Below, piece after piece: positions 7,471 through 51,766 of a stretch of 64,000 bases of DNA. The notes below the pieces were generated by a model. It was given only the letters and a program-made list of their open reading frames with translations. It made no database searches and was not told the origin of the DNA. A program made the translations under genes and the position numbers. Source of the DNA: a virus; the IMG/VR virus record IMGVR_UViG_3300023179_006341, positions 1-64,000 of that record. One strand, 5' to 3'. How positions within the stretch are numbered: position 1 is the stretch's first letter; the number at the start of each line of letters is the position of its first letter.

Positions 7471-8823
7471 TCAATCAATCCATTGAGCAAATTCAGGAAA
7501 TAACGATAGGAAGTCTGTATTTCTGCGTTGGTCTAAGGTACTAAAGTATACATAAATTTCTTCTGCTGTATCTTTACATTGTATCATAGTAGGATTTTTT
7601 TCAATGCCATCACGTGTTGTTATTAAGAAATCTCTAAAATCACACCAATTAGTGTATGATTTATGGTTACGATAAAGGTCGTTATTAATCAGTTCATCAA
7701 ATACTTTAATAGGTTGGTCTAAAAACCTAGCAAATTCTTTAGGTGCTTTAAGCGGACTTTGCTCTTTGGGCCAAGTTACAATATTACGATGTATTTCAAA
7801 AGGATAATATTGTTCTACACATTCTTTAAAATAATTAAGATAATTTATAAATGATGGTAAACCAAGCAAGTTTAAACATGGCATAAAGTTAATTGTTACC
7901 ATGTCAGGCATTTGCAACAATGTTTCTAAATTATGTTTAAATCGTTTCCATTTTACACCGTATCTTATGTATTCAAGTTCATCCCCAATATTTTCACCAC
8001 TTACTTGTATAATGATATCAAAATGTTCACGTAATTTTGGTAGATAATTTAAAAACTTTTTAAAGTAAGCTTCGGGAGTGTTTAAATTGGTTGTAATACA
8101 TAATTCAATTTTTGGATAATAGTCATCATTTAGTATATTGTGAAATGGTTCAGTACGTGGATATTTGGTGTGTATGTTAATTAATTCTTCAAAGCATTCG
8201 TAAATTAAATCAGTTATAAGCGGTTCACCACCTATAAAACCAAACCTAAGTAATTGCTTCATACCTATATTTTTGTACCATTCCCAAAAAAGTTTTTCAA
8301 CTTCAGGGTTGCGTGAACCAATTTGACTACTTTCTCTAGTCATTGGTATATTAAATTTTTTCTTTTCTGCATACCATTGTGTGCTATAATGTTCACTACA
8401 ATAAGTGCATTTTGCATCACATGTATTGTTTAAGACTATCTCAATAATATTGGAATATGAACTTAATTGTAAGGTTGGGTTAGTTAAGTCTTGTTTTGAT
8501 TTTGGTGTGATTTGAACATTTCTGTGCATGTATTGCTCAAATTTTGTGTCATTTCTTGCACTTTTAAAACCTTTATTTTCTATGCTCCAACATGTATTAC
8601 AATCACTATGTTGCTCATTGTTAAGTAAACTTTTTCTTCGTTCTTGATGTTTGGGTAAGTTAGAAAATAAATCATAACCTAATGTGTGATATATTTCGGG
8701 GGTAATCTTGGTACGTTCTGTTCTGCAACAATAAGTAAAGCTTGGTTCACTGATATAGAACATCAAGTAGTCCCAAGCATAATTACACAGTGTATTAGGA
8801 CGTTCAGGATAGATTGGTATCAT
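7471..8823 (-). CDS. Radical SAM protein with N-terminal auxiliary cysteine domain
   Basis: A 450-residue protein, a longer relative of the one at 6311. The N-terminal domain has LCNYAWDYL, YCCRTE and CNTCWS. The radical SAM motif CDAKCTYC is at residues 135-142, then GFIGGEPL. The C-terminal region beyond residue 330 is extra and contains NWCDFRDF and MIQCKD, possibly more cluster ligands. Its start overlaps the stop of the upstream minus-strand radical SAM gene by 4 bases, so the pair forms a two-gene operon read toward lower coordinates. Substrate unknown. Confidence 0.8.
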   Translation of the reverse strand: MIPIYPERPNTLCNYAWDYLMFYISEPSFTYCCRTERTKITPEIYHTLGYDLFSNLPKHQERRKSLLNNEQHSDCNTCWSIENKGFKSARNDTKFEQYMHRNVQITPKSKQDLTNPTLQLSSYSNIIEIVLNNTCDAKCTYCSEHYSTQWYAEKKKFNIPMTRESSQIGSRNPEVEKLFWEWYKNIGMKQLLRFGFIGGEPLITDLIYECFEELINIHTKYPRTEPFHNILNDDYYPKIELCITTNLNTPEAYFKKFLNYLPKLREHFDIIIQVSGENIGDELEYIRYGVKWKRFKHNLETLLQMPDMVTINFMPCLNLLGLPSFINYLNYFKECVEQYYPFEIHRNIVTWPKEQSPLKAPKEFARFLDQPIKVFDELINNDLYRNHKSYTNWCDFRDFLITTRDGIEKNPTMIQCKDTAEEIYVYFSTLDQRRNTDFLSLFPEFAQWID

Positions 8824-9887
8824 TTACGATCACCGAACAAAACAAAATGTTCAGGTGCGTAGCCTTCCATAATTTCCTCCCAATTTTTTGTAATTTTAGA
8901 TTGGTCAGGTGTTGCAAATTTATTTTGCATACTACCACGAATAGGCACAAATGCCCATGTACATAATTCAGTAAAATGTGCAATACTTTTAAGTTCTTCT
9001 TCTAAGCTAAGAGCTTCATCCACAAATTGTGGTGGCATCATAAATTTCACTTCTAAATGTCCAACATTGCGATTACCATGTTTTGATTTTTCGCTAGCAA
9101 TAGCTTCAACTACTTTAACAAATTTTGGTCTATCATAAAACTCAAAATGCACTGATAAATTAAGGTCACCAAAATGTATAAGTTCACGATAATAATCAGG
9201 TTTTCTTGAACCATTACTATGTAAACTAATGTGATGACCAAATGCGTTAAGGTAACGTAACCAATCTATAAAATCTTTGTTAGTAGTAGGTTCACCACCA
9301 CTTATAATAAAGTTAACACTTTCACCTTTAATAAACTTTTCTTCTAATAAATTAGTTGCTTTGATTAAGTCTGCTAATGGTTTGTGTGGGTCAGTATTAT
9401 TGTGTATCCAAGGCCAACAATAAGAACAATCATAATTACAACGTCTACCAATTTCCCAATAAATTTGTTTTTGACTACTAACATGTGTGCGTTCTAATGC
9501 AACAAATTCTGTTAGTGTTGGATCATTCTTATCCATTTGAGTGGGTAATTCTGCACTTTGTCGTAGTAAGAATATTGTTTTTTCATTGGTTGCTTTTGGT
9601 ATGAATAAATCTGCGCCACATGAACACACATTTTGTGTACAATCAATCCAAGTATTTGGTACATTAAATGTATTCCATACACTACCTAGTTTGCCACCTA
9701 CTCTACAGCTTGCAGTCCAAACATAACCATCCATGTCGATAAACAAGCTATCTACACCTGCGCCACACTTCCATCCTAATAAATGGTTAAGTTTAGCTCC
9801 AACAAGTTCGTCTGTGCTCCAATCTCTCCAATGTCCTAGTTCATTATATGTTCTAATCGGTTTACCCGCAGTTTTGTGTAATGTCAT
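8820..9887 (-). CDS. Radical SAM protein with SPASM-like domain placed first
   Basis: A 355-residue protein. A cysteine-rich domain (C41, C61, C83, C88, C90; motif FIDMDGYVW) comes first. The radical SAM site CNYDCSYC follows at residues 150-157, then ISGGEPT. The N-terminal domain resembles the C-terminal domain of the 5364 protein (VDMDGEIFRGW), so the two proteins look circularly permuted relative to each other. First gene of the minus-strand pair; the gap at 9888-9928 separates it from the divergent gene at 9929 and should hold promoters for both, including an AATAAATA read on the minus strand. Substrate unknown. Confidence 0.78.
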   Translation of the reverse strand: MTLHKTAGKPIRTYNELGHWRDWSTDELVGAKLNHLLGWKCGAGVDSLFIDMDGYVWTASCRVGGKLGSVWNTFNVPNTWIDCTQNVCSCGADLFIPKATNEKTIFLLRQSAELPTQMDKNDPTLTEFVALERTHVSSQKQIYWEIGRRCNYDCSYCWPWIHNNTDPHKPLADLIKATNLLEEKFIKGESVNFIISGGEPTTNKDFIDWLRYLNAFGHHISLHSNGSRKPDYYRELIHFGDLNLSVHFEFYDRPKFVKVVEAIASEKSKHGNRNVGHLEVKFMMPPQFVDEALSLEEELKSIAHFTELCTWAFVPIRGSMQNKFATPDQSKITKNWEEIMEGYAPEHFVLFGDRK

Positions 9888-18952: not shown

Positions 18953-19702
18953 ATGTCTCAAAGAATACCTTATACATATTATGTCTTTCATAAACCAACA
19001 GGTTTAAAATACTATGGTTCAAAGTATGGAAAAAATGCTGATCCTAATAGTTTTTGGAAACCTAATGGATACTATACTTCTTCAAAAAAAGTTAAAAAGC
19101 TTATTTTAGAATATGGAATTAATTCATTTAATGCCGAGGTGAGGAAAATTTTTGACAGTCCTGAAAAAGCATTGATTTACGAATACAAATTTTTAAAAAA
19201 AGTAAAAGCTTTATCAAAAGATGATTGGTTAAATGATAATTACGGAGGAGAAAAATTTAGAAATATTGGTCCTGCTAGCGAAAAAACTTTGCAAGCACAA
19301 AAAAATAAAAAACAATCACCTGAAAGTAATATAAAAAGATCTAATTCTTTAAAAGGCAGAATTATTTCTGATGAAACAAGAAAAAAAATGTCAGAAGTTC
19401 AAAAAAATAGATCTGAAGAAAATGAAATGCTTAGGCGAGACAAAATTAGACAACATGCTTTAGGAAGAAATCAAAGTGAAAAAGTTAAAAAACAATTGTC
19501 TCATATAGTTAGTAACACAAGATGGGTTCATAATGGCAAAATGCAAAAAAAAGTTGGTAAAGATGAGTTACAAATATATATAGATAATGGTTGGCATAAT
19601 GGTAGAATTTTGTCTATAGTTACTTGTCCACATTGTGATCAAAGTGGTGTAAAACATAATATAGCTAGAAAACACTTTGATAAATGCCAATCTAAAAAAT
19701 AG
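18953..19702 (+). CDS. Putative homing endonuclease (GIY-YIG-like)
   Basis: A 249-residue basic protein. The N-terminus (PYTYYVFHKPTGLKYYGSKYG, residues 4-24) and following FTSS/LEYG-type phrases resemble phage homing endonucleases related to GIY-YIG. The middle SDETRKKMSEVQKNRSEE is a NUMOD3-like DNA-binding repeat. The C-terminus has a zinc-finger-like CPHCDQ...HFDKC. It is a selfish gene placed between ahpC and the antiporter with its own late-promoter-like octamer. Start ATG 18953 follows AAAGGAG; a GTG two codons upstream is less likely. Confidence 0.65.
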   Translation: MSQRIPYTYYVFHKPTGLKYYGSKYGKNADPNSFWKPNGYYTSSKKVKKLILEYGINSFNAEVRKIFDSPEKALIYEYKFLKKVKALSKDDWLNDNYGGEKFRNIGPASEKTLQAQKNKKQSPESNIKRSNSLKGRIISDETRKKMSEVQKNRSEENEMLRRDKIRQHALGRNQSEKVKKQLSHIVSNTRWVHNGKMQKKVGKDELQIYIDNGWHNGRILSIVTCPHCDQSGVKHNIARKHFDKCQSKK

Positions 19703-19718
19703 CAAAGGTTGGTTAATA

Positions 19719-20894
19719 ATGAGTAATATATTATTGATAATTGCAGCCATGGTTTTTATACCATGGCTGTTTTTAAAGTTAACTAAGCTAGACAAACATA
19801 TACCACTGCCAATGGCTCAGATTGCTTTTGGTATATGCTTTGGTCCTAGCGCATTAGGTTCAGCATTTCCTGAATTATGGTCAAACGTTTTTACGCAACC
19901 TGTTCGATTTGGTTTAGACGCTATACAAATATTAGCGATTAGCGTATTTGCATTTATTGCAGGTATTGAATTAAAACCAAAAGAAATTATTGAACGTGAA
20001 GGTCATGCAATATGGAAACAAGCATTTCATGTCATACTCATACCTATTCTTTTGGCAGGTTTAAGTTTCATCGTATTTTTTGATGATCCAATTTGGCATA
20101 ATCCTGATATACCATTTTGGAAATATGCATGGACAATGGGTGTAGCAACTTGTATTACTGCTATGCCTATGTTGGTAGTTGCATGTAAATCAATGGGTAT
20201 ATGGGGCACACATACTGCTAAAAAATTGCTAGGATTGGTAACTTTTGATGATTTAGTATTATGGTTGACTGTAGCTGTAATTGTCAGTGTAGGCAAATAT
20301 GCTGTAAATGCATCTATATTTTTTGCAGTATTGGTAGCATTATGGTATCTTTGGCCTAAGATATTACAAGTCGCAGGTGAAAATGCTTATCCAACCTTGA
20401 CTGTTGCTTTAGCTTTAATCATGGCAAGTTTTAGTCATTGGGCAGGATTGCATTATGTTTTAGGTGCATTTTTTGCAGGTATGATTACGCCAAGACATGC
20501 TATTAAATGGAATGAAGGCATGGAACTTCAACAAATGTATTGGTTGATGCCTGTATTTTTTATTTGGACAGGATTGAAATCACAATGGACATTAGACTTT
20601 GAAGTAATCCTTATGGGTGCATTGGGTATGTTTGTTGTTGCCATAATAACAAAATTTGTAGGTGTATGGTTGGCTTATCGTGAACAAGGTATGCGACTAG
20701 TGTGCTTTAAAACTGCACTACTTCAAAATAAAGGGTTAATGGAAATATTTTTAGTATCCATGTTATTGAGTGCAGGAATTATTAGTGATAATATGTTTGC
20801 TGCGGTGGTTATTATGAGTTTAATGAGCACTATTGTTGCTGTGCCTTTAGCAAAACTCTTTTACAAACCTGAATACATTGAACACAAAATTTAA
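19719..20894 (+). CDS. Cation:proton antiporter (CPA2/Kef-type)
   Basis: A 391-residue integral membrane protein with about 11-13 hydrophobic helices and no C-terminal TrkA-N domain. FGICFGPSALGSAFP is the conserved GPSALG-type re-entrant region, followed by VFAFIAGIELKPKE (typical FIAGLELD-like). It would exchange Na+ or K+ for protons across the inner membrane, affecting pH and ion balance. Start ATG 19719 (MSNILLIIAAM) is preferred over an upstream codon inside the previous gene. Neighbours are ahpC, terC and ahpD. Phage-borne antiporters are unusual. Confidence 0.85.
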   Translation: MSNILLIIAAMVFIPWLFLKLTKLDKHIPLPMAQIAFGICFGPSALGSAFPELWSNVFTQPVRFGLDAIQILAISVFAFIAGIELKPKEIIEREGHAIWKQAFHVILIPILLAGLSFIVFFDDPIWHNPDIPFWKYAWTMGVATCITAMPMLVVACKSMGIWGTHTAKKLLGLVTFDDLVLWLTVAVIVSVGKYAVNASIFFAVLVALWYLWPKILQVAGENAYPTLTVALALIMASFSHWAGLHYVLGAFFAGMITPRHAIKWNEGMELQQMYWLMPVFFIWTGLKSQWTLDFEVILMGALGMFVVAIITKFVGVWLAYREQGMRLVCFKTALLQNKGLMEIFLVSMLLSAGIISDNMFAAVVIMSLMSTIVAVPLAKLFYKPEYIEHKI

Positions 20895-28843: not shown

Positions 28844-29998
28844 ATGTCAAAGATTGATACTAGTTTTAGCTTTACGCTTGATGAAGCAGAGGATGCTCTA
28901 CATAGCCTTATCAAGACCAAACTTTCTATGTTTCTATGGGGTCCACCAGGGATCGGTAAATCTGACCTCATTCGTTCTATCGCACGTAAAAATGCTTGGG
29001 CAGTACGTGAAGTGCGCCTTGGTCAAATCGACCCTACAGATATCAAAGGAATTCCATTCTTTAACTCTGATAAGTCATATTATGCGTTTAATGAGCACAC
29101 TAAAGAGTTTGAAGAAACCAAAGGTACTCTAGATTGGGCACCACCATCAGAATTTCCTGATGCCAAATTTGCTGAACAATATGAGCAAGTTATTCTATTT
29201 CTTGATGAAATGAATGTTGCTGCCCCCACTGTTCAAGCTGCTGCTTATCAACTTGTTCTTGATCGTCGTGTTGGTAAATATAAAGTTCCTGAGAACGTAA
29301 TTATCGTTGCTGCAGGTAACCGTGATAGTGATAAAGGTGTAACTTATCGTATGCCATCACCACTATCTAACCGTTTTATCCATATGGATATTCGCCCTGA
29401 TTTCAACGTATGGCAAAATTGGGCAGTACAAAACAATATACACAAAGATGTAGTGGGTTACTTGTCATTCGCTAAAAATGACTTGTATGATTTTGATGGT
29501 CGCAGTAGTGGACACGCATTTGCTACACCACGTAGTTGGTCAGCAGTAAGTAAAATTCTAGAGGATGCACCAACCATTCCAAGTGAATTGTTAACTAAAA
29601 TTATCGCAGGTACTGTTGGTGATGGTCTTTCAGTCAAGTTTATGGCGCACCGTAAGCTTGTTGACAAAATGCCTGATCCTATGGACATTCTACAGGGTAA
29701 AGTCACTGAGCTTGCAGTAAAAGAAGTTAGTGCTATGTACTCACTTACTGTAAGTATGTGCTACGAATTAAAAGACATGAGCGATAGCAAAAAAGTAGAA
29801 GGTAAGAAATTTCACGAAATGTGCGACAATTTCTTCAAATTTATGATGGAAAATTTTGAAACTGAGTTGGTTATTATGGGTGCAAGAATTGCCCTGAAAA
29901 CCTACAAATTGAATATTGATCCTACACAGTTGAAAACTTTGACTGATTTCCATAAGAAGTATGGTAAGTACATTAAGGAAGCCATTAACACTAAGTAA
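28844..29998 (+). CDS. MoxR-type AAA+ ATPase
   Basis: A 384-residue protein. Walker A GPPGIGKS is at residues 33-40, Walker B VILFLDEMN with Asp121-Glu122, and AAGNRDSDKG is sensor 1. This matches MoxR-like AAA+ chaperones that usually pair with a VWA-domain protein. The next gene is such a partner, so together they likely form an ATP-driven machine that remodels or activates a protein complex. It has its own sigma70-type promoter, implying early expression. Target unknown. Confidence 0.85.
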   Translation: MSKIDTSFSFTLDEAEDALHSLIKTKLSMFLWGPPGIGKSDLIRSIARKNAWAVREVRLGQIDPTDIKGIPFFNSDKSYYAFNEHTKEFEETKGTLDWAPPSEFPDAKFAEQYEQVILFLDEMNVAAPTVQAAAYQLVLDRRVGKYKVPENVIIVAAGNRDSDKGVTYRMPSPLSNRFIHMDIRPDFNVWQNWAVQNNIHKDVVGYLSFAKNDLYDFDGRSSGHAFATPRSWSAVSKILEDAPTIPSELLTKIIAGTVGDGLSVKFMAHRKLVDKMPDPMDILQGKVTELAVKEVSAMYSLTVSMCYELKDMSDSKKVEGKKFHEMCDNFFKFMMENFETELVIMGARIALKTYKLNIDPTQLKTLTDFHKKYGKYIKEAINTK

Positions 29999-30008
29999 AA
30001 TGTAGGAA

Positions 30009-30031
30009 AAGTGGGGTGAAATTCCCCACTT
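30009..30031 (+). other. Stable hairpin without T tract
   Basis: AAGTGGGG pairs with CCCCACTT across a 7-base loop, just after the ATPase gene. It lacks a T run, and its last bases overlap the -35 of the next promoter. It could protect the upstream mRNA end or act as a weak terminator. Confidence 0.5.
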
Positions 30032-30058
30032 GATTAAAAATAGTTATTGTGTTATCAT
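30030..30058 (+). promoter_or_regulatory. Sigma70-type promoter for the VWA gene
   Basis: TTGATT, 17 bases, TATCAT. The ATG at 30085 follows AAAGGAAAG. Confidence 0.6.
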
Positions 30059-30084
30059 GATGCTATTATATCAAAGGAAAGTTT

Positions 30085-31380
30085 ATGACTATTACCGCTA
30101 ATACCAAAGAAAACAAAAAAATTAAAAAAGAGTTTGAAGATTTGATCGGTCCGTTCGACCCTGTTCTTGATCGTGAAGCACGTGACATTATTACAGGCGC
30201 ACGTGTTGCCCTACTGCTTAAACATTCATTTTTTGGTAACTTAGCTACACGTCTTAAACTAATTAATGGTGATGAGTGGTTACCTACTGCCGCTACTGAT
30301 GGTAAGCGATTCTATTATAATAGTCGTTTTATCAAAAAACTTACACGTGGTGAGGTTGAGTTTCTTGTTGGTCATGAAGTACTTCATGTTGTTTATGATC
30401 ATATTGGTAGGATTGGTCATCGTGATCGTCAAATGTTTAACATTGCCAATGACTATGCTGTTAACGCAGACCTGAAAAAACATAATGTAGGTACGTTTAT
30501 TACTACAGTACCATGCTTATACGAACCCAAATATGAAGGTAAATCATCTGAAGAAATTTATGATGATTTAATGAAAAATATCCAAACCATCAGTATGGAT
30601 GCACTGATCGATAAAATGATCGATGAACACCTTGAAGGTGATAGTGAGGGTGATGAGGGTGATGATGATGGTGATATGGATAAAACAGGACGTAGCAAGA
30701 ACGGTCCTAAGAAAATGACCGATGAAGAACGTGAACAACTTCGCCAAGAAATTAAACAAAATATTATCAATGCAGCACGTAGTAGTGAAGCAGGATCTAT
30801 CCCTAAAGGTGTAGAGCGTTTAATTAAGGATATTACTGATCCTAAAATGCCTTGGAGAGAATTGCTTCAAACCAACATTGTTTCAACGTTGCGTGATGAC
30901 TATACTTTTATACGCCCAAGCAAGCGTGGTTGGCATCTTGATGCTATCTTACCTTCACTGAATTTTAGTGAGCTAATCGACATATGCGTAGCTATTGATA
31001 TGAGTGGCAGTATTAGTGATAAACAAGGCAAAGATTTCTTAAGTGAAATTCAAGGTATCATGGACATGTTTAATAACTACAAGATTCACGTGTTTTCATT
31101 TGATACACGTTGCTACAATTTAAAAGAATTTAATTCTGAAAATATGGATAGTATTGTTGATTATGAACTAAAAGGTGGTGGTGGTACTGACTTTGATGCA
31201 ATTTTTGATTTCTTAAAAAACCAAGCTATCGAACCAAAACGTTTAGTAGTGTTTACTGATGGATATCCTTGTGGATCATGGGGTGATGCAAATTATTGTG
31301 ATACAACGTGGATTATTCATGGTGATTCCAACCCAAACCCACCTTTTGGAACATGGGCAATTTATGATGACCACAAATAA
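30085..31380 (+). CDS. VWA-domain protein with metallopeptidase-like N-domain
   Basis: A 431-residue protein. HEVLH (His97, Glu98, His101) within VGHEVLHVVYDH is a zinc HExxH motif in a DUF2201-like N-terminal domain. An acidic linker (residues 185-200) follows. The C-terminal von Willebrand A-like domain has MIDAS motif DMSGS at residues 305-309 and a later FTDG. The usual partner of MoxR ATPases, which it follows here. It probably supplies substrate recognition and perhaps peptidase activity. Whether the peptidase is active is unknown. Confidence 0.82.
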   Translation: MTITANTKENKKIKKEFEDLIGPFDPVLDREARDIITGARVALLLKHSFFGNLATRLKLINGDEWLPTAATDGKRFYYNSRFIKKLTRGEVEFLVGHEVLHVVYDHIGRIGHRDRQMFNIANDYAVNADLKKHNVGTFITTVPCLYEPKYEGKSSEEIYDDLMKNIQTISMDALIDKMIDEHLEGDSEGDEGDDDGDMDKTGRSKNGPKKMTDEEREQLRQEIKQNIINAARSSEAGSIPKGVERLIKDITDPKMPWRELLQTNIVSTLRDDYTFIRPSKRGWHLDAILPSLNFSELIDICVAIDMSGSISDKQGKDFLSEIQGIMDMFNNYKIHVFSFDTRCYNLKEFNSENMDSIVDYELKGGGGTDFDAIFDFLKNQAIEPKRLVVFTDGYPCGSWGDANYCDTTWIIHGDSNPNPPFGTWAIYDDHK

Positions 31381-44693: not shown

Positions 44694-45626
44694 ATGAATC
44701 ATTCAAACACTGTAAAATTAATTAAAAATCCATACGAAGCAACAGTTTTTAAAAACGACAACGAATTACAAGATTTTATAAAATGTTGTGACCCACAAAC
44801 AGGTTATCTATATTTTATGGATAATTTCTTTATTATTCAACACCCAACCAAAGGTAGTATGAATTATCATCCGTGGTCATATCAAAAACGATTAATAGAA
44901 ACTTATCATAATTATAGATATTCAATAGCGTTGATGCCACGTCAAAGTGGTAAAAGTACAAGTGCAGCAGGTTATCTTTTATGGTATGCAATGTTTGTTC
45001 CTGATAGCACAATTTTAATAGCTGCACATAAGTATGCAGGTTCACAAGAAATTATGCAACGTATACGATATGGTTATGAAAATTGTCCATTACACATTAA
45101 AGCAGGGGTTGTTACATATAATAAAGGATCACTAGATTTTGAAAATGGCAGTAGGATTATTTCCGCTACTACAACAGAAACTACAGGTCGTGGTCTCTCA
45201 ATATCATTATTATACTTAGATGAGTTTGCGTTCGTAAGACCAAGCATTGCTAAAGAATTTTGGACTTCTATTGCACCAACCTTAGCAACAGGTGGTAAAG
45301 CAATCATAACAAGCACACCAAATAGTGATGAAGATCAATTTGCTATAATTTGGAAAGGTGCAAATAAAACACAAGATGAATATGGTAATACAACAGAATT
45401 GGGAGTAAATGGATTTAAAGCATATAAAGCACATTGGAGCGAACAACCAGGTCGTGACACCGCTTGGGCTGACAACATGAAAGCACAATTAGGTGAAGAA
45501 CGTTTCAGACGAGAAATTGGGTGTTTTTCGGGTAAGACAAATATAAGACTTAAAGACTCAACAGGTAAAATATTTACAACAACCATGGAAGAATTAGAAA
45601 AAATGTTAGCAATTCGTAATAGCTGA
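44694..45626 (+). CDS. Terminase large subunit, N-terminal half fused to split-intein N fragment
   Basis: A 310-residue protein. Residues 1-276 are the ATPase half of a gp17-type terminase: Walker A RQSGKST (83-89), Walker B LLYLDE (172-177), coupling motif TSTPN (206-210). At Cys277, after FRREIG, the sequence changes to CFSGKTNIRL, intein block A. It ends 34 residues later with no splice block B. The rest of the intein and the nuclease half are encoded at 46447. The two proteins should trans-splice to a 526-residue terminase that packages DNA. The very short N-intein resembles the AceL-TerL split intein. Confidence 0.9.
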   Translation: MNHSNTVKLIKNPYEATVFKNDNELQDFIKCCDPQTGYLYFMDNFFIIQHPTKGSMNYHPWSYQKRLIETYHNYRYSIALMPRQSGKSTSAAGYLLWYAMFVPDSTILIAAHKYAGSQEIMQRIRYGYENCPLHIKAGVVTYNKGSLDFENGSRIISATTTETTGRGLSISLLYLDEFAFVRPSIAKEFWTSIAPTLATGGKAIITSTPNSDEDQFAIIWKGANKTQDEYGNTTELGVNGFKAYKAHWSEQPGRDTAWADNMKAQLGEERFRREIGCFSGKTNIRLKDSTGKIFTTTMEELEKMLAIRNS

Positions 45627-45634
45627 TGAAATAG

Positions 45635-45642
45635 TATAAATA
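45635..45642 (+). promoter_or_regulatory. Late-promoter-like octamer TATAAATA
   Basis: TATAAATA between the N-terminase gene and the HNH gene, 5 bases before ATG 45648. It may give the endonuclease its own transcript. Confidence 0.45.
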
Positions 45643-45647
45643 AATAT

Positions 45648-46469
45648 ATGTTACAAAATAAATATCAAAAATGGTATATGAAAATAATATATCATGCTAC
45701 AAATCAAAAAAGACCACAAAAAGGTCATGAAATGCATCATATCATCCCAAAATGTATGGGTGGTTTAAACAAAAAAGAAAATTTAGTTAGACTTACATTA
45801 CGAGAACATTATATTTGTCATTTGTTATTGCCAAAGTTTACAACAGGCGATGACCAAAGAAAATTAAAATTTGCTCTTTGGTGTTTTATTAATAAGTGGG
45901 GAAGAAAATCTTGCAAATTTAAAATGAATAGTAAAATGTACGAAAAATTAAAGATTGAAATTTCTGATCAAATTTCTAAACTTAACAAAGGTAAAATTAA
46001 CCCCCCTTTAAGCGTGGAAATGATTAAAAAATTTTCTGAACGAATGAGAGGTGATTCTAACCCCATGTATGGAAAATTGGGTTCTGAAAATCCAAATTTT
46101 GGTAAGAAACGGCCTGGTATAGGTGGTAGAAAAAAAGGCACTACATGGTCAGACGAAGAGCGTTCTATACATCTTAAGATACGATCAGAAATAGGATATT
46201 ATAATTATTTAAAAGATCCGAAAAGAGGAGAAAAAATAAGTAATTCACAACGAGGAAGAATTGGGACAGCTTTGGGAAAAGTTTGGTATAACGATGGTAT
46301 TAATGAATACTATGGAAATCAAGTTCCTATAGGATTTAATAAAGGTAGATTGATTTCAAATTCTTCTAAAAAAGGCATGAAATGGTTTACTAATGGGGTA
46401 GTAAGTAAACAGTTTAAAGAAGATATGCAACCACAGGATTTTATTCGTGGAAGAATTATTAAAAAATAA
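45648..46469 (+). CDS. HNH homing endonuclease inserted in the fractured terminase
   Basis: A 273-residue protein. EMHHIIPKCMGGLNKKENLVRL (His30-His31, Asn45), then EHYICHLLL (His54, His58), is the phage HNH pattern. RMRGDSNPMYGKLGSENPNFG is a NUMOD3-like DNA-binding repeat. Two C-terminal W(Y/F)N(D/N)G motifs (VWYNDGINEYY, KWFTNGVVSKQF) resemble one in the 18953 endonuclease (RWVHNGK). It lies exactly where the intein is broken, as in the fractured-gene arrangements known from environmental phage genes. It overlaps the next gene by 23 bases. Confidence 0.85.
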   Translation: MLQNKYQKWYMKIIYHATNQKRPQKGHEMHHIIPKCMGGLNKKENLVRLTLREHYICHLLLPKFTTGDDQRKLKFALWCFINKWGRKSCKFKMNSKMYEKLKIEISDQISKLNKGKINPPLSVEMIKKFSERMRGDSNPMYGKLGSENPNFGKKRPGIGGRKKGTTWSDEERSIHLKIRSEIGYYNYLKDPKRGEKISNSQRGRIGTALGKVWYNDGINEYYGNQVPIGFNKGRLISNSSKKGMKWFTNGVVSKQFKEDMQPQDFIRGRIIKK

Positions 46470-47532
46470 CTTAGGGCTACAAATACTTACTGATACAGGT
46501 TGGCAATCTTTTAGCGGCATTGTCAAAAAAGGTATTAAACACACTATAACTATAGAATTAGAAAATATCTCAGTAACTTTAACACCCGATCATAATGTTT
46601 TTTTGGAAAATTTGACAAAAATACCTGCGAACAACCTTAGAAAGGGTGACAGTGTTTGTACATTAAATGGGCCGCAAATTGTAAAAAATATTTATGAGCA
46701 TTGTTTAGAAGTTGTTTACGATATAGTTAATGCAGGTTCCAATAAAAGATTTTATGCAGATGATATACTTTGTTCAAACTGTGAATTTATTATTGGTGAT
46801 GAAACACTTATTAATCCTCTTATATTGAATACTCTTGAAGGTATTGAACCAATTGAAAGAATGGGTCAAGTACGTTGGTTTTCTAAACCGCAAAAGGGTA
46901 ATATTTATTGTGTAGGATTAGATCCAAGTTTAGGTACAGGAAGTGATCCTGCTGCAATACAAATATTTGAGGCTAATACAACTAAACAAGTTGGTGAATG
47001 GAAACATAATCGTACTACAATACCTGAACAAATTAAATTATTAGCTAAGATCATTGATTATATTGTAGATATCACAAAAGAACCAAATAATTTATATTAT
47101 AGTTTAGAAAATAATACTATAGGTGAAGCAGCATTGATCTCATTAGCAGAATATGGTGAAGAAAACATCAAGGGAACAATGTTAAGTGAACCTAAACAAG
47201 TAGGATCGACTAGAAGATATCGTAAAGGATTTAATACCACACAAAAAAGTAAATTAGCAGCATGTTCAAAGTTAAAAAATTTAATTGAAAGTGGAAAAAT
47301 GTCACTTAAGAGTAATGCTTTGATATCTGAATTAAAGTCATTTGTTGCTGCAGAAGGTAGTTATGCTGCTAAAATTGGAGAAACTGATGATTTAGTTATG
47401 GCAACATTATTAGTTGTAAGAATATTTCAACATTTACAAAACTATCATAGTGATTTAGACACGCATCTTAAAGATCATAGTGAATATATTGAACCAATGC
47501 CTTTTATAATGACATTAAGTTCTGTAAGCTGA
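46447..47532 (+). CDS. Split-intein C fragment fused to terminase C-terminal (nuclease) half
   Basis: A 361-residue protein. Residues 1-111 are the intein C fragment, with block B LTPDHNVFL, RKGDSV, and block F/G VYDIVN...RFYADDILCSN. Splicing would occur between Asn111 and Cys112 (CEFIIGDETLINP), giving REIG-CEFI in the ligated terminase. Residues 112-361 hold the RNase H-like nuclease, with VGLDPSLGTGSDPA, SLENNTIGEA and ETDDLVMATL. Ser replaces the usual penultimate His. The best start is GTG 46447, after AGGA and inside the endonuclease gene; no ATG is available before the intein. Confidence 0.88.
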   Translation: MEELLKNNLGLQILTDTGWQSFSGIVKKGIKHTITIELENISVTLTPDHNVFLENLTKIPANNLRKGDSVCTLNGPQIVKNIYEHCLEVVYDIVNAGSNKRFYADDILCSNCEFIIGDETLINPLILNTLEGIEPIERMGQVRWFSKPQKGNIYCVGLDPSLGTGSDPAAIQIFEANTTKQVGEWKHNRTTIPEQIKLLAKIIDYIVDITKEPNNLYYSLENNTIGEAALISLAEYGEENIKGTMLSEPKQVGSTRRYRKGFNTTQKSKLAACSKLKNLIESGKMSLKSNALISELKSFVAAEGSYAAKIGETDDLVMATLLVVRIFQHLQNYHSDLDTHLKDHSEYIEPMPFIMTLSSVS

Positions 47533-47559: not shown

Positions 47560-49863
47560 ATGCCAAAAAATAACGATTTAATTAATGTAGATTTAGAAAA
47601 ATTTCTTGATGCTAATAATTTAAATGCTATTCCATATGATAGTAGTGGAAAACAAGTACCCATTCCCGATGAAGCAGAATTATTTCAATTTAAATTTGCT
47701 TCCAATGGTGATGAAAAAGGTACAGCTACTGTATCGATTGATGGTACAAAAACTTTAAATGTTTATTACGATGATGCAATTATGACAGAAAACAATGCCT
47801 CTGACGATTGGTTTGATTTTATTAAACGATTAAAACGATTTGCAATGACGCATCAGTTAGATTTTAAAACTAAAAATATGGATAGGTTAGCTACTGATAT
47901 GAAAAAACGTGAACATCAAAAAAAATTAGATGAAGGTTATTATGGGACACGCCATACTAGTTATAGCGATAAAAACCCAGGCACCGTCAAAATGATTCTT
48001 AAACACAATCGCCCACTTGAAGAAACTGATGCAAGATTTAGAAACATTCAAAAGATTTTTTTAGAAACTGATACAGGAGAACGTTTTTTACTTGATACAA
48101 AAAAGCCAAATATAGCTAGAGCATTTGCAAGACATTTAGCTGAAGGTGGTCGTTATAATGATGAAAGATGGAATCATATTACTCAAATAGCTGAAGATAT
48201 TAATCGTTTAGGTGGTTTTGTACGTGCTACACGTAATAAACAATTTAATGAAAGTGCAGTAAAATTAGTTAATGAAGCACAAAATCATTATCAATCTTTG
48301 CGTGAAACAATAAAACAAATACAAGGTTCACGAGGATATAACAAATATTTTGAAAGTTGGAAACCGACTTTAAATGAAGATGATCATGATAATTCAATAT
48401 CAGAAATGTTTTTAACACAGAGACTTGATCCACGAGTTGAAAGTGCAATACCTGTATTAAATCGTTTATCAAAAAATATAACAGAAATGTCTGAAGTAAA
48501 TGAATTTACTGAATGGGCAAGTAATATAGTTCATGAAGTATTACATCCAACTGCAGAAGGTTCACTTGATGATTTAGTAGATTTAGTTGGTGCTGATAGT
48601 GAGTTTATGACTCTTGGTCCTGATGGAAAAAATGCAATCAATGAAATAGAAGGTATTATTAATGAACCTGCATTAAATTCACGCTTACAAAAAGCGGGAA
48701 TGAGTAAACCTGATCAAGACGCACGTCCTATAATTATTGGTTGGATGCAAGAAAATGCCAAGGATAAACATTATGAAGAAATTTTGGCTAAAATTGAAAC
48801 TGAGCAACCTGCACCTAAAATAACTAAACCTGCACCCCAACCTAAAAAAGAAACCCCACCTGATATACCTCCACCCCCACCTCCTGAAGTAGCTAGGGAA
48901 GACTATGATCCACGTTTATCACAAAAAACACAGATTGCAGGTACATTGCCAACATATCGCCACGCTAAAGCTGTACTAGACAAGTTAAACGGTGTTGAAG
49001 GTAAAACACTTGACTTTGGTGCAGGACTTGGTTTAGGTTCAGCAGAAATTGGTGCAGATAGTTATGAAATGCATCCTAAAGCAGGGTTCAAACCTAATTT
49101 TGATCGTGTAGATTCTATTCCCGATGAATCATATGCTAAAATTGTCTCGCTAAATGTTCTTAATGTCATACCAAATGACAAGGGATGGCGTGACGCAGCA
49201 GTTAAAGATATTGGTCGTATTTTGATGCCAAATGGTACTGCCTTAATTACTACTCGTGGCAAAGATGTATTAGCTGCAAAAGGTGAACCACAAGATGAAC
49301 CAAATAGTATTATCACAAGTGCAGGAACTTTCCAAAAAGGATTTACTCCACAAGAGTTAGCAAGTTATGTACAAAATGTATTAGGTAGTGGGTTTAAAGT
49401 TAAAGCAGTTAAAGTTGGTAGCGCACCTGCTGCTATCTTAGTTACAAAAGGTGGAGAACAAGTTAACGAACTCAAGGGTAAATTACCAACACCTGATGAA
49501 ATGAGAACATTGTTACAAAAACAAAAGAAACGCTTTGATGATCAAGGTTTTGTACGTGCTGCTGATGATACAGATAAATTAGCAAAAACTTTTTATAAGC
49601 CTGAACCATCTAAAAAAATAGATACAATAATGAAAGAATTTGCTGAATCATTAGATGAAGCTAAGGATAAAGAACCATCTGTGAAAATACGTAATCCTGT
49701 AGCAAAAAATGCTATGGCAGGTATTGGGGGTGGTGCGGCAGGACAACATAAAGATAAGAAAAAAGCTGATCAACGTGGTGATGTAAAGCATAAAAAAGAT
49801 AGAATCCCAATGGATCTTGATGAAGGTTCACTTGATAGGATCAGAAAACTATCAGGGTTATAA
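47560..49863 (+). CDS. Large phage protein with methyltransferase-like domain
   Basis: A 767-residue, mostly helical charged protein. Residues 425-450 are Pro-rich (KKETPPDIPPPPPPEV). About residues 460-630 form a class I methyltransferase-like domain (KTLDFGAGLGLGSAEI as motif I, IGRILMPNGTALITT later). Near the end, GIGGGAAGQHKDKKKADQRG is a tail phrase I recall from large virion proteins of T4-like phages, and it closes LDRIRKLSGL. It may be a virion protein with an embedded enzyme. Target of methylation unknown. Confidence 0.55.
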   Translation: MPKNNDLINVDLEKFLDANNLNAIPYDSSGKQVPIPDEAELFQFKFASNGDEKGTATVSIDGTKTLNVYYDDAIMTENNASDDWFDFIKRLKRFAMTHQLDFKTKNMDRLATDMKKREHQKKLDEGYYGTRHTSYSDKNPGTVKMILKHNRPLEETDARFRNIQKIFLETDTGERFLLDTKKPNIARAFARHLAEGGRYNDERWNHITQIAEDINRLGGFVRATRNKQFNESAVKLVNEAQNHYQSLRETIKQIQGSRGYNKYFESWKPTLNEDDHDNSISEMFLTQRLDPRVESAIPVLNRLSKNITEMSEVNEFTEWASNIVHEVLHPTAEGSLDDLVDLVGADSEFMTLGPDGKNAINEIEGIINEPALNSRLQKAGMSKPDQDARPIIIGWMQENAKDKHYEEILAKIETEQPAPKITKPAPQPKKETPPDIPPPPPPEVAREDYDPRLSQKTQIAGTLPTYRHAKAVLDKLNGVEGKTLDFGAGLGLGSAEIGADSYEMHPKAGFKPNFDRVDSIPDESYAKIVSLNVLNVIPNDKGWRDAAVKDIGRILMPNGTALITTRGKDVLAAKGEPQDEPNSIITSAGTFQKGFTPQELASYVQNVLGSGFKVKAVKVGSAPAAILVTKGGEQVNELKGKLPTPDEMRTLLQKQKKRFDDQGFVRAADDTDKLAKTFYKPEPSKKIDTIMKEFAESLDEAKDKEPSVKIRNPVAKNAMAGIGGGAAGQHKDKKKADQRGDVKHKKDRIPMDLDEGSLDRIRKLSGL

Positions 49864-49864
49864 T

Positions 49865-51766
49865 ATGTCAGAACTAATATTGTTGGAATCATCTAAACCA
49901 TCTGTTGGTCGTGAATTCCAACACTTAGAGGATCTTATATACATTGAAGGTAAACGTGGTATTAAACGTGTACTAGAATGTATAGCAGGTATTATTAAGC
50001 GTCAACCACTTGAAGTAAAATGGGATGGAAGTCCTGCAATATTATTCGGTAGAACTGATAATGGGCGTTTTCATTTTGGTGACAAGTATAGTCGTGATAT
50101 TGTAGATAATCCACGTGCAGTATATGAGCAATATATTGGACGCAAGCCTAAAAAAACATTTGAGCGTGAACAATTTGCACGTGATATGGCTGCATTGTTT
50201 GAAGTATATGAAGCAGCAACACCAAAAGATTTTCGTGGTTTTTTAGAAGCAGGATTATTATATAAGAATTCACCTGCACTAACTGAAGATTGTTTTCAAT
50301 GTAATCCAAACACAGTAATTTACAAAATTAATAACAGTAGTAACTTGGGTAAGCGTGTTGCCAATAGTAAGAGTGGATGTGCGGCTACAGCATATTTTCA
50401 ACATTTACCTGCCACAGGTGGTAGAAGATATCCTGTAGGCGATCATTCCAATCATTTTAATAGTAATGATGTAGTTATTATACCACCTTTGCACACAAGT
50501 GATACGGTGAGATTAGACCGTAGCATGTTAGAAAAATTATGGAATTTTGCTAAACAAAAACAACATAGTATTGATCAGTTTGTTGGACCACAAAACATTA
50601 AAAAAATGATTTATGAGTATGTAAATAGTCAAGTAAGTGAAAATGAATTAAGTGCATTACATAATTTAGGTGATAATTTTACAAGATGGTCACGTGATAG
50701 TTTATCTGCAAAAGAACAAAATATATTGGCTGAACATTTAAAACAACACATAGATGGTGCCAATGATACGTTTAGGTTAGTACGTGCAACAATGAAATTA
50801 AAAGATATGATTGTTGACCAATTAGAAGAATCGACATTAAGTAAAATTGGTATACAAGCAGAATTACCTGATGGACAACGTGGTGGTGAAGGATTTGTCT
50901 ATGATATTAATGAAGGTATTAATCCTATCAAATTAGTTAAACGTGGATCATTTACACGAGCAAATAAATTTAAGAATGAGTCAAAATATTTAAAAGAGTC
51001 ATTAAGTAGAAGTGGTAAAAGTGATCGTGCTGTCATTACTTTTGGTCGTTGTATGGGTCATCGTGGACATATGTATTTGGCTAATAGTGTGTTTACAACT
51101 GCTAAAGAACAAGGTGCAGATCCATATATTATTGTAAGTCGTACATTGGGTGATGATGATCCACTGACTCCGAATGAAAAATTATCTATCTATCATAAAG
51201 TATTTCCAAATCATAAGCATTGTTTTCAAGCTTCAGACGATAGTATGCCAACATTAATGAGTGCCTTAAAGAAATTAAATGAATTAGGATACAAGCATAT
51301 TACTGCTATCTTTGGTAATGATCGTGCTGATAGTATGAGTCATATTAAAGAATATAATGGGCGCAGTTATCAATTTGAAACATTAAACGTAATAAGTCGT
51401 CAACAAACTAATGATCCATACCGTAATATAAATGGACCACGTGGTACGGATATGCGTAATGTATTAAATAATCCAAATTTATCTGAAAAAGAAAAATTTG
51501 GATATTGGCGTAAATGTATGAGTCCACAATTAAGTGATGATGATGTACAATATATAATGGATATAGTAAAAAAACGTATTGGACATAATTTAAATGAAGC
51601 AGATAATCCAATGTATATTGGTGGTAACACTAATAGCCCCATCCCAGGCACCCCTGAAGATTTAGCCGATACTAGAACACCTGAACAAAAACGCAAAGAT
51701 GCCAAGCGAGCGATTAAGCAGGCACGAGAATTACGCAAATTTATGGGTCATAATGAAGTTCGTTAA
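49865..51766 (+). CDS. Ligase-like nucleotidyltransferase fused to cytidylyltransferase-like domain
   Basis: A 633-residue protein. Residues 49-60 (LEVKWDGSPAIL) show the KxDG motif of covalent nucleotidyltransferases (DNA/RNA ligases, capping enzymes) with Lys52. The C-terminal part, near residue 400, has FGRCMGHRGHMYLANSVF, an HxGH-like motif of NMNAT/adenylyltransferase folds. The N-terminus MSELILLE|S fits an L-x-E|S prohead cleavage site. Similar phage proteins are known under domain-of-unknown-function labels. It might join or cap RNA or handle NAD; this is inference. Start ATG 49865. Confidence 0.6.
   Translation: MSELILLESSKPSVGREFQHLEDLIYIEGKRGIKRVLECIAGIIKRQPLEVKWDGSPAILFGRTDNGRFHFGDKYSRDIVDNPRAVYEQYIGRKPKKTFEREQFARDMAALFEVYEAATPKDFRGFLEAGLLYKNSPALTEDCFQCNPNTVIYKINNSSNLGKRVANSKSGCAATAYFQHLPATGGRRYPVGDHSNHFNSNDVVIIPPLHTSDTVRLDRSMLEKLWNFAKQKQHSIDQFVGPQNIKKMIYEYVNSQVSENELSALHNLGDNFTRWSRDSLSAKEQNILAEHLKQHIDGANDTFRLVRATMKLKDMIVDQLEESTLSKIGIQAELPDGQRGGEGFVYDINEGINPIKLVKRGSFTRANKFKNESKYLKESLSRSGKSDRAVITFGRCMGHRGHMYLANSVFTTAKEQGADPYIIVSRTLGDDDPLTPNEKLSIYHKVFPNHKHCFQASDDSMPTLMSALKKLNELGYKHITAIFGNDRADSMSHIKEYNGRSYQFETLNVISRQQTNDPYRNINGPRGTDMRNVLNNPNLSEKEKFGYWRKCMSPQLSDDDVQYIMDIVKKRIGHNLNEADNPMYIGGNTNSPIPGTPEDLADTRTPEQKRKDAKRAIKQARELRKFMGHNEVR

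What the first reader, a model, noticed from the sequence alone, without database searches (positions are those of the whole stretch)
44694..47532. Terminase broken by an atypically split intein with a nested HNH gene
The N gene ends with only intein block A (34 residues). A free HNH endonuclease follows. The C gene starts with a 111-residue intein fragment carrying blocks B, F and G before Cys+1. The very short N and long C fragments match the layout of the AceL-TerL split intein. Splicing would restore REIG-CEFI within a 526-residue gp17-like terminase. Such short N fragments are rare and biochemically interesting.
Basis: partly seen in the sequence, partly recalled or inferred. Interest (0 to 1): 0.9.

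Follow-up and report, generated by a model that had tools for sequence, protein, structure and literature searches.

The report
Split-intein phage terminase with nested nuclease
A phage's DNA-packaging motor gene is cut into two genes whose proteins should be rejoined by a self-splicing element with an unusually short first half; a homing-nuclease gene sits in the gap, and relatives show the nuclease being swapped or lost and the two halves fused again.

Summary
TerL-N plus a 34-aa IntN (44694-45626), an HNH/NUMOD3 nuclease gene (45648-46469) and a 111-aa IntC plus TerL-C (GTG 46447-47532) form a fractured terminase. Joining at REIG|CEFI gives 526 aa, 92% identical to an intact intein-free terminase (L003). 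The record holds no other terL, and no intron is detected. IntC is predicted to be a confident HINT fold (pLDDT 91), matching VidaL, gp41-1 and Cat, the AceL/GOS-TerL consensus. In 61 non-redundant loci with the same intein at the same site, splicing residues are kept (Cys1 56/56; TxxH, Asp, Cys+1 61/61) and IntC dN/dS is 0.03-0.18; none has the usual penultimate His (46 Ser, 15 Lys). It is a new member of the known atypically split TerL inteins and of 'fractured genes'. Splicing itself is inferred, not shown.

The parts
44694..45521 (+). TerL N-extein: ATPase part, residues 1-276, ending REIG
   Evidence: Pfam Terminase_6N 1.3e-13; PHROG 36964 3.6e-58; 91% identical to intein-free L006 over residues 4-277
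45522..45623 (+). IntN, 34 aa, Cys1 and block A; stop TGA 45624-45626
   Evidence: aligned with IntN of 7 split relatives; Cys1 in 56/56 scored loci, IntN length 30-37 aa in 50 split loci
45648..46469 (+). HNH/NUMOD3 (MobE-like) homing endonuclease gene, 273 aa, with C-terminal repeats ending GRIIKK*
   Evidence: Pfam NUMOD3, PHROG 655 homing endonuclease 6.8e-39; phage matches annotated MobE/homing endonuclease
46435..46438 (+). AGGA, likely Shine-Dalgarno of the IntC gene, inside the nuclease gene
   Evidence: read from sequence; relatives have GAAGGA/GAGGGG-like sequence at the same place, in nuclease codons E-G
46447..46469 (+). 23-nt overprint: the same bases encode nuclease end GRIIKK* and IntC start VEELLKN
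   Evidence: nuclease frame +2 relative to IntC in 18 of 19 loci and 20-23 nt overlap in 13 of those 19; start codon (ATG or GTG) in the same place in all 10 aligned loci
46447..46779 (+). IntC, 111 aa: blocks B (TPDH), F (VYDIV..RFYA), G (LCSN)
   Evidence: AlphaFold2 mean pLDDT 91.4; Foldseek to VidaL E 3.9e-7 TMq 0.84, gp41-1, Cat 6DSL
46780..47532 (+). TerL C-extein: Cys+1 and nuclease domain, CEFIIGDETLI..., 250 aa
   Evidence: Pfam Terminase_6C 6.5e-8; PHROG 36964 3.8e-44; 93% identical to intein-free L003

Best explanation
The locus is a fractured terL gene: a mobile, atypically split class 1 intein of the AceL/GOS-TerL type with a nested free-standing homing endonuclease. Three proteins are made: TerL-N-IntN, the HNH endonuclease, and IntC-TerL-C. 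The 34-aa IntN docks onto the largely prefolded 111-aa IntC, rebuilding the HINT domain. Cys1 (N-S shift), transfer to Cys+1 and cyclisation of the last Asn then join REIG to CEFI, giving an intact 526-aa packaging motor (inferred from conserved residues and the known pathway). The HNH protein would cut intein-free terL alleles at or near this site, so that repair copies the whole IntN-HEN-IntC cassette (inferred). The sequence shows directly: exact anatomy, conserved catalytic residues, purifying selection on IntC, intein-free sister alleles, repeated gain or loss, and replacement of the nuclease by other nuclease classes.
For: Exact split with nothing lost. Intein-free sisters L003/L006/L007: the window's TerL-C is 94% identical to L003 and nests with them (99*), yet its intein's closest relative is only 67% identical (L087), as expected for recent horizontal arrival. 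At least 9 intein presence/absence changes on the TerL tree. 61 non-redundant loci: Cys1 56/56, TxxH 61/61, block F Asp 61/61, Cys+1 61/61. IntC dN/dS 0.03-0.18 in 8 pairs. IntC model pLDDT 91, matches VidaL, gp41-1, Cat; natural contiguous relative L106 folds as a whole HINT domain, best match VidaL, TM 0.82. No Rfam intron, and only 21 nt separate the IntN stop from the nuclease start. No other terL in the record.
Against: No experiment. The penultimate block G His is absent in the whole family (0/61) and the window also lacks the block F His, both of which usually assist Asn cyclisation, so splicing could be slow or need native exteins. The record is an incomplete metagenomic virus contig. 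The homing target was not identified.
Confidence: 0.9

Rival explanations
1. The two halves work as a non-covalent two-chain terminase and the intein is a dead remnant. The break (T4 gp17 residue ~354) is close to the hinge between ATPase and nuclease domains.
For: Cys+1 aligns with T4 gp17 residue 354, near the end of the ATPase domain (own knowledge of the gp17 structure); splicing helpers (penultimate His) are missing.
Against: Splicing residues are conserved in every locus scored and IntC is under purifying selection. Halves re-fused as contiguous inteins in L097 and L106 keep the splicing residues, which a dead remnant would not need.
Confidence: 0.06
2. An RNA intron (group I or II) carrying the HNH gene interrupts a contiguous cis-intein, so the mRNA rather than the protein is spliced.
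For: NUMOD3/HNH nucleases often sit in phage introns (own knowledge).
Against: No Rfam intron at E<=1, only a chance miRNA hit; the nuclease ORF fills the gap (21 nt on the left, 23-nt overlap on the right); each half has its own stop or start codon, conserved in relatives.
Confidence: 0.02
3. Assembly or sequencing error breaking a cis-intein with an in-frame nuclease.
For: Single metagenomic contig.
Against: 50 split loci with IntN of 30-37 aa and a recurring nuclease/IntC overlap, from many metagenomes; isolated Providencia phage PSTRCR_127 has the same arrangement.
Confidence: 0.01

Closest known systems
AceL-TerL / GOS-TerL / Cat atypically split TerL inteins
   Same: Short IntN, long IntC (25/104, 37/115, 30/104; PMC11766414), host gene terL, Cys+1 then Glu+2; CatC is the best PDB sequence match to the window IntC (8.6e-6) and is among its structural matches.
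   Different: Only distant: CatC is 23% identical over the structural match. The window family lacks the penultimate His (Cat has SH before its mutated Asn). Whether AceL/GOS carry a nested nuclease was not checked (primary papers not held).
'Fractured genes' with split inteins and free-standing homing endonucleases (Dassa et al. 2009, NAR; known here by citation only)
   Same: A nuclease gene lies between the two gene halves, each with an intein half.
   Different: Window: atypical split point, HNH rather than the new nuclease family of that paper's title (own recollection of its type), nuclease 3' end overprinted on IntC.
Jumbo phage vB_PaeM_MIJ3 DNA polymerase B split intein with HNH gene (PMC6892783)
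   Same: Split intein with HNH gene between the halves of a phage gene.
   Different: Host gene PolB; MIJ3's own terL is intein-free at this site.
Providencia phage PSTRCR_127 gp17 (MW358927, L083)
   Same: Isolated phage; terL-IntN, nuclease, IntC-terL at the aligned site FKQEH|CAEF, IntC gene overlaps the nuclease stop.
   Different: GIY-YIG (SegE-like) nuclease, penultimate His present (THN|C), about 29% identical; intein not annotated in the record.
VidaL and gp41-1 split inteins
   Same: Best structural matches.
   Different: Low sequence identity (18-23%).
ShiLan hidden HNH insertion in phage methylase (PMC11855218)
   Same: HNH gene read in another frame across its host gene.
   Different: Whole-length overprint, no splicing domain; here only about 23 nt overlap and a real intein.

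Membership tests
Class 1 intein (HINT) | Cys/Ser1, TxxH (B), Asp (F), terminal Asn, Cys/Ser/Thr+1 | tested here: met
   Window sequence; 61-locus tally
Class 1 intein (HINT) | Penultimate His in block G (usual, not universal) | tested here: not met
   0/61; Ser 46, Lys 15. Not treated as excluding: it is a helper residue, and all nucleophiles are present.
Class 1 intein (HINT) | HINT fold | tested here: met
   AF2 models and Foldseek to solved inteins
Class 1 intein (HINT) | Splicing activity | not testable with these tools
   needs expression assay
Atypically split TerL intein (AceL/GOS type) | Natural split near the N end: IntN about 25-37 aa, IntC about 104-115 aa | tested here: met
   34/111; published values
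Atypically split TerL intein (AceL/GOS type) | Same insertion site in TerL | tested here: inconclusive
   CatC carries Cys+1 Glu+2 like the window's CEF; AceL/GOS full host sequences not available here
Atypically split TerL intein (AceL/GOS type) | Common ancestry of IntC | tested here: met
   phmmer 8.6e-6 to CatC over 107 residues
Fractured gene with homing endonuclease | Free-standing nuclease gene between split halves | tested here: met
Fractured gene with homing endonuclease | Intein-free alleles and mobility | tested here: met
   L003/L006/L007 intein-free; at least 9 presence changes
Fractured gene with homing endonuclease | Nuclease cuts the intein-free allele | not testable with these tools
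   needs cleavage assay
Group I/II intron | Catalytic RNA core | tested here: not met
   no Rfam match

The most novel reading that the evidence does not exclude
In this terL lineage splitting is a reversible stage of a homing cycle. Nucleases of three classes have replaced one another in the same gap of the same split intein, with a 3' overprint on IntC. When the nuclease is deleted, the two intein genes are re-fused into one contiguous intein, whose linker is the old nuclease 3' end read out of frame. Some lineages carry two split inteins and so build one terminase from three polypeptides by two trans-splicing reactions. The family splices without the penultimate His.
Probability: 0.55. Interest if true: 0.75.

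Novelty: new member of a known kind. Interest (0 to 1): 0.52.

Why it matters
Naturally split inteins with short N fragments are sought-after tools for protein labelling, and few have been characterised. This locus opens a family of 61 non-redundant members at one site, with intact, degenerate and re-fused forms side by side. That lets one test how split inteins arise and revert, how homing nucleases are exchanged, and how Asn cyclisation proceeds without the penultimate His.

Tried and rejected
(1) Duplicated helix at IntN tail (MEELEKML) and IntC head (VEELLKNN): an apparent short direct repeat suggested overlapping fragments. Dropped: in the models the IntN tail is a helix and the IntC head a strand, and the clean cis-intein L162 has KELTVNN where IntC starts. 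(2) Late promoter TATAAATA at 45635: not enriched (6 on + strand, 10 expected). (3) Intron: none. (4) Relatives in bacterial/archaeal genomes: none. (5) Co-conversion signal around the insertion versus L003: identity is flat, no tract seen. (6) PDB match for IntN alone: none meaningful. (7) Nuclease fossil in the cis-inteins L132 and L162: scores not clearly above shuffles, so these are not claimed as re-fusions.

Full report
OBSERVATION. TerL-N (44694-45626) ends in a 34-residue IntN. An HNH gene follows (45648-46469). IntC and TerL-C run from a GTG at 46447 to 47532. The GTG is preceded by AGGA with 8-nt spacing, and all 10 aligned relatives have a start codon (ATG or GTG) at this place. The N and C genes match the same TerL family up to and from the same profile position (PHROG 36964, 628/627). 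The joined protein has 526 residues, 483 of them identical to the contiguous terminase of L003. The window lies in a 79,519-base IMG/VR record, in which no second terL was found.

INTEIN. Cys1, TPDH (block B), VYD (block F), terminal Asn and Cys+1 are present. AlphaFold2 on the IntC alignment gives pLDDT 91.4. Its structural matches are VidaL, gp41-1 and others including Cat. By sequence its best solved relative is CatC (8.6e-6), which PMC11766414 describes as the consensus of GOS-TerL and AceL-TerL. A natural contiguous relative (L106) folds as a complete HINT domain (pLDDT 89.7, best match VidaL, TM 0.82). Two oddities: the penultimate residue of block G is Ser, and the block F His position is Lys. 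The first is a family trait: of 61 non-redundant loci none has His (46 Ser, 15 Lys), while the residues that carry out splicing are kept (terminal Asn was part of the junction pattern used to define the set, and the three loci left out by that pattern also have Asn-Cys).

RELATIVES. A scan of IMG/VR with the IntC alignment gave 80 loci; with those and the window they reduce to 61 non-redundant loci. The slot between the intein halves holds HNH genes in 37, GIY-YIG in 8 (one frameshifted), and DUF7487 proteins with a PD..(I/V)E(I/V)K motif in 5. Three have degenerate or deleted nuclease, five are contiguous, three are cut by the contig end. On the IntC tree the nuclease class changes at least 9 times and split/contiguous at least 5 times. 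Many forks of that tree are unresolved (111 columns), so these counts are approximate.

MOBILITY. On the TerL-C tree with 19 intein-free rows, presence changes at least 9 times. The window sits with intein-free L003, L006 and L007 (99*, 94% identity to L003), while its intein has no relative closer than 67%. IntC is under purifying selection (dN/dS 0.03-0.18 in eight pairs). This is what a mobile but splicing-competent element should look like.

OVERPRINT AND RE-FUSION. In 18 of 19 loci checked the nuclease frame is +2 relative to IntC; in 13 of the 19 the overlap is 20-23 nt. The bases that encode the nuclease end (..EGFVRGRIxKK*) also provide the Shine-Dalgarno, the start codon and the first residues of IntC. 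In L097 (one of five near-identical records, L095-L099), L106 and L130 the nuclease is gone and both intein halves lie in one frame. The linker, read in the old nuclease frame, still spells REGSQPKGFLHGRINKK*, EGFHRGRISKK* and NKQFKDGTQPEGFTRGRIRKK*. Local scores are 81, 49 and 88, against best-of-300-shuffle values of 42, 36 and 39. That orders the events: nuclease first, deletion and re-fusion later. L130 has an in-frame stop further upstream in terL, so it may be damaged or mis-sequenced. L132 and L162 are contiguous without a clear fossil. L154/L156 have IntN fused to the remaining nuclease C-terminal domain.

SECOND SPLIT INTEIN. L011, L104, L137 and L149 are also broken at Walker B (LLY|CLDGDT.. 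and ..|CDEFAFV), with inserts between the halves, so terL lies in three pieces; L132 and L157 have variants of this, and in L154 that second intein is contiguous. Salicola phage SCTP-2 is split at the same Walker B site.

MECHANISM. Shown: anatomy, conservation, selection, mobility pattern, fold prediction. Inferred: docking of IntN on IntC, trans-splicing through Cys1/Cys+1/Asn, and homing by the HNH protein. The main doubt is efficiency without the penultimate and block F His.

KNOWN OR NEW. Atypically split TerL inteins (AceL, GOS) and fractured genes with nested nucleases are known, and an HNH gene inside a phage split intein is published for MIJ3 PolB (PMC6892783). The window is a new member. 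Nuclease exchange in one slot, reversal of splitting with a nuclease fossil, and three-piece terminases were not found in the papers searched, but that library lacks most subscription journals, including the primary AceL and fractured-gene papers.

Noticed in passing
L011:3198-5458; L104, L137, L149, L132, L154, L157: Second intein at TerL Walker B (ISLLY|C......SHQ|CDEFAFV), split in several, some ending in Gln instead of Asn; together with the CEF-site intein it leaves terL in three pieces.
   Followed up: partly
L002:5001-6014, L086, L089, L127, L164: DUF7487 (PF24308, unknown function) occupies the homing-nuclease slot and carries a PD..IVEIK motif, suggesting it is a PD-(D/E)XK/Vsr-like homing endonuclease.
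   Followed up: partly
L083 (Providencia phage PSTRCR_127, MW358927): Isolated Straboviridae phage with the same fractured gp17 and a SegE-like GIY-YIG gene; only the C part is annotated as terminase, the intein is unannotated.
   Followed up: partly
L082:2495-4579 (Salicola phage SCTP-2): Terminase ORF starts with an IntC at Walker B and contains a further contiguous intein-like insert (TIS|CLAPGT...GSN|TGGK).
   Followed up: no
window 19677-20894: ORF with a sodium/hydrogen exchanger domain (PF00999, 1.1e-25), unusual for a phage.
   Followed up: no
window 28844-31380: AAA (MoxR-like) ATPase gene next to a DUF2201 metallopeptidase/VWA-like gene.
   Followed up: no
window 7471-9887: Two adjacent minus-strand radical SAM genes (one below the Pfam cut-off).
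   Followed up: no
window 49817-51766: DUF6267 domain fused to a cytidyltransferase-like domain (PHROG 3041).
   Followed up: no
L039:3913-6006: TerL-N hit broken near residue 87 with a roughly 1.2-kb insert, possibly another mobile-element site near Walker A.
   Followed up: no
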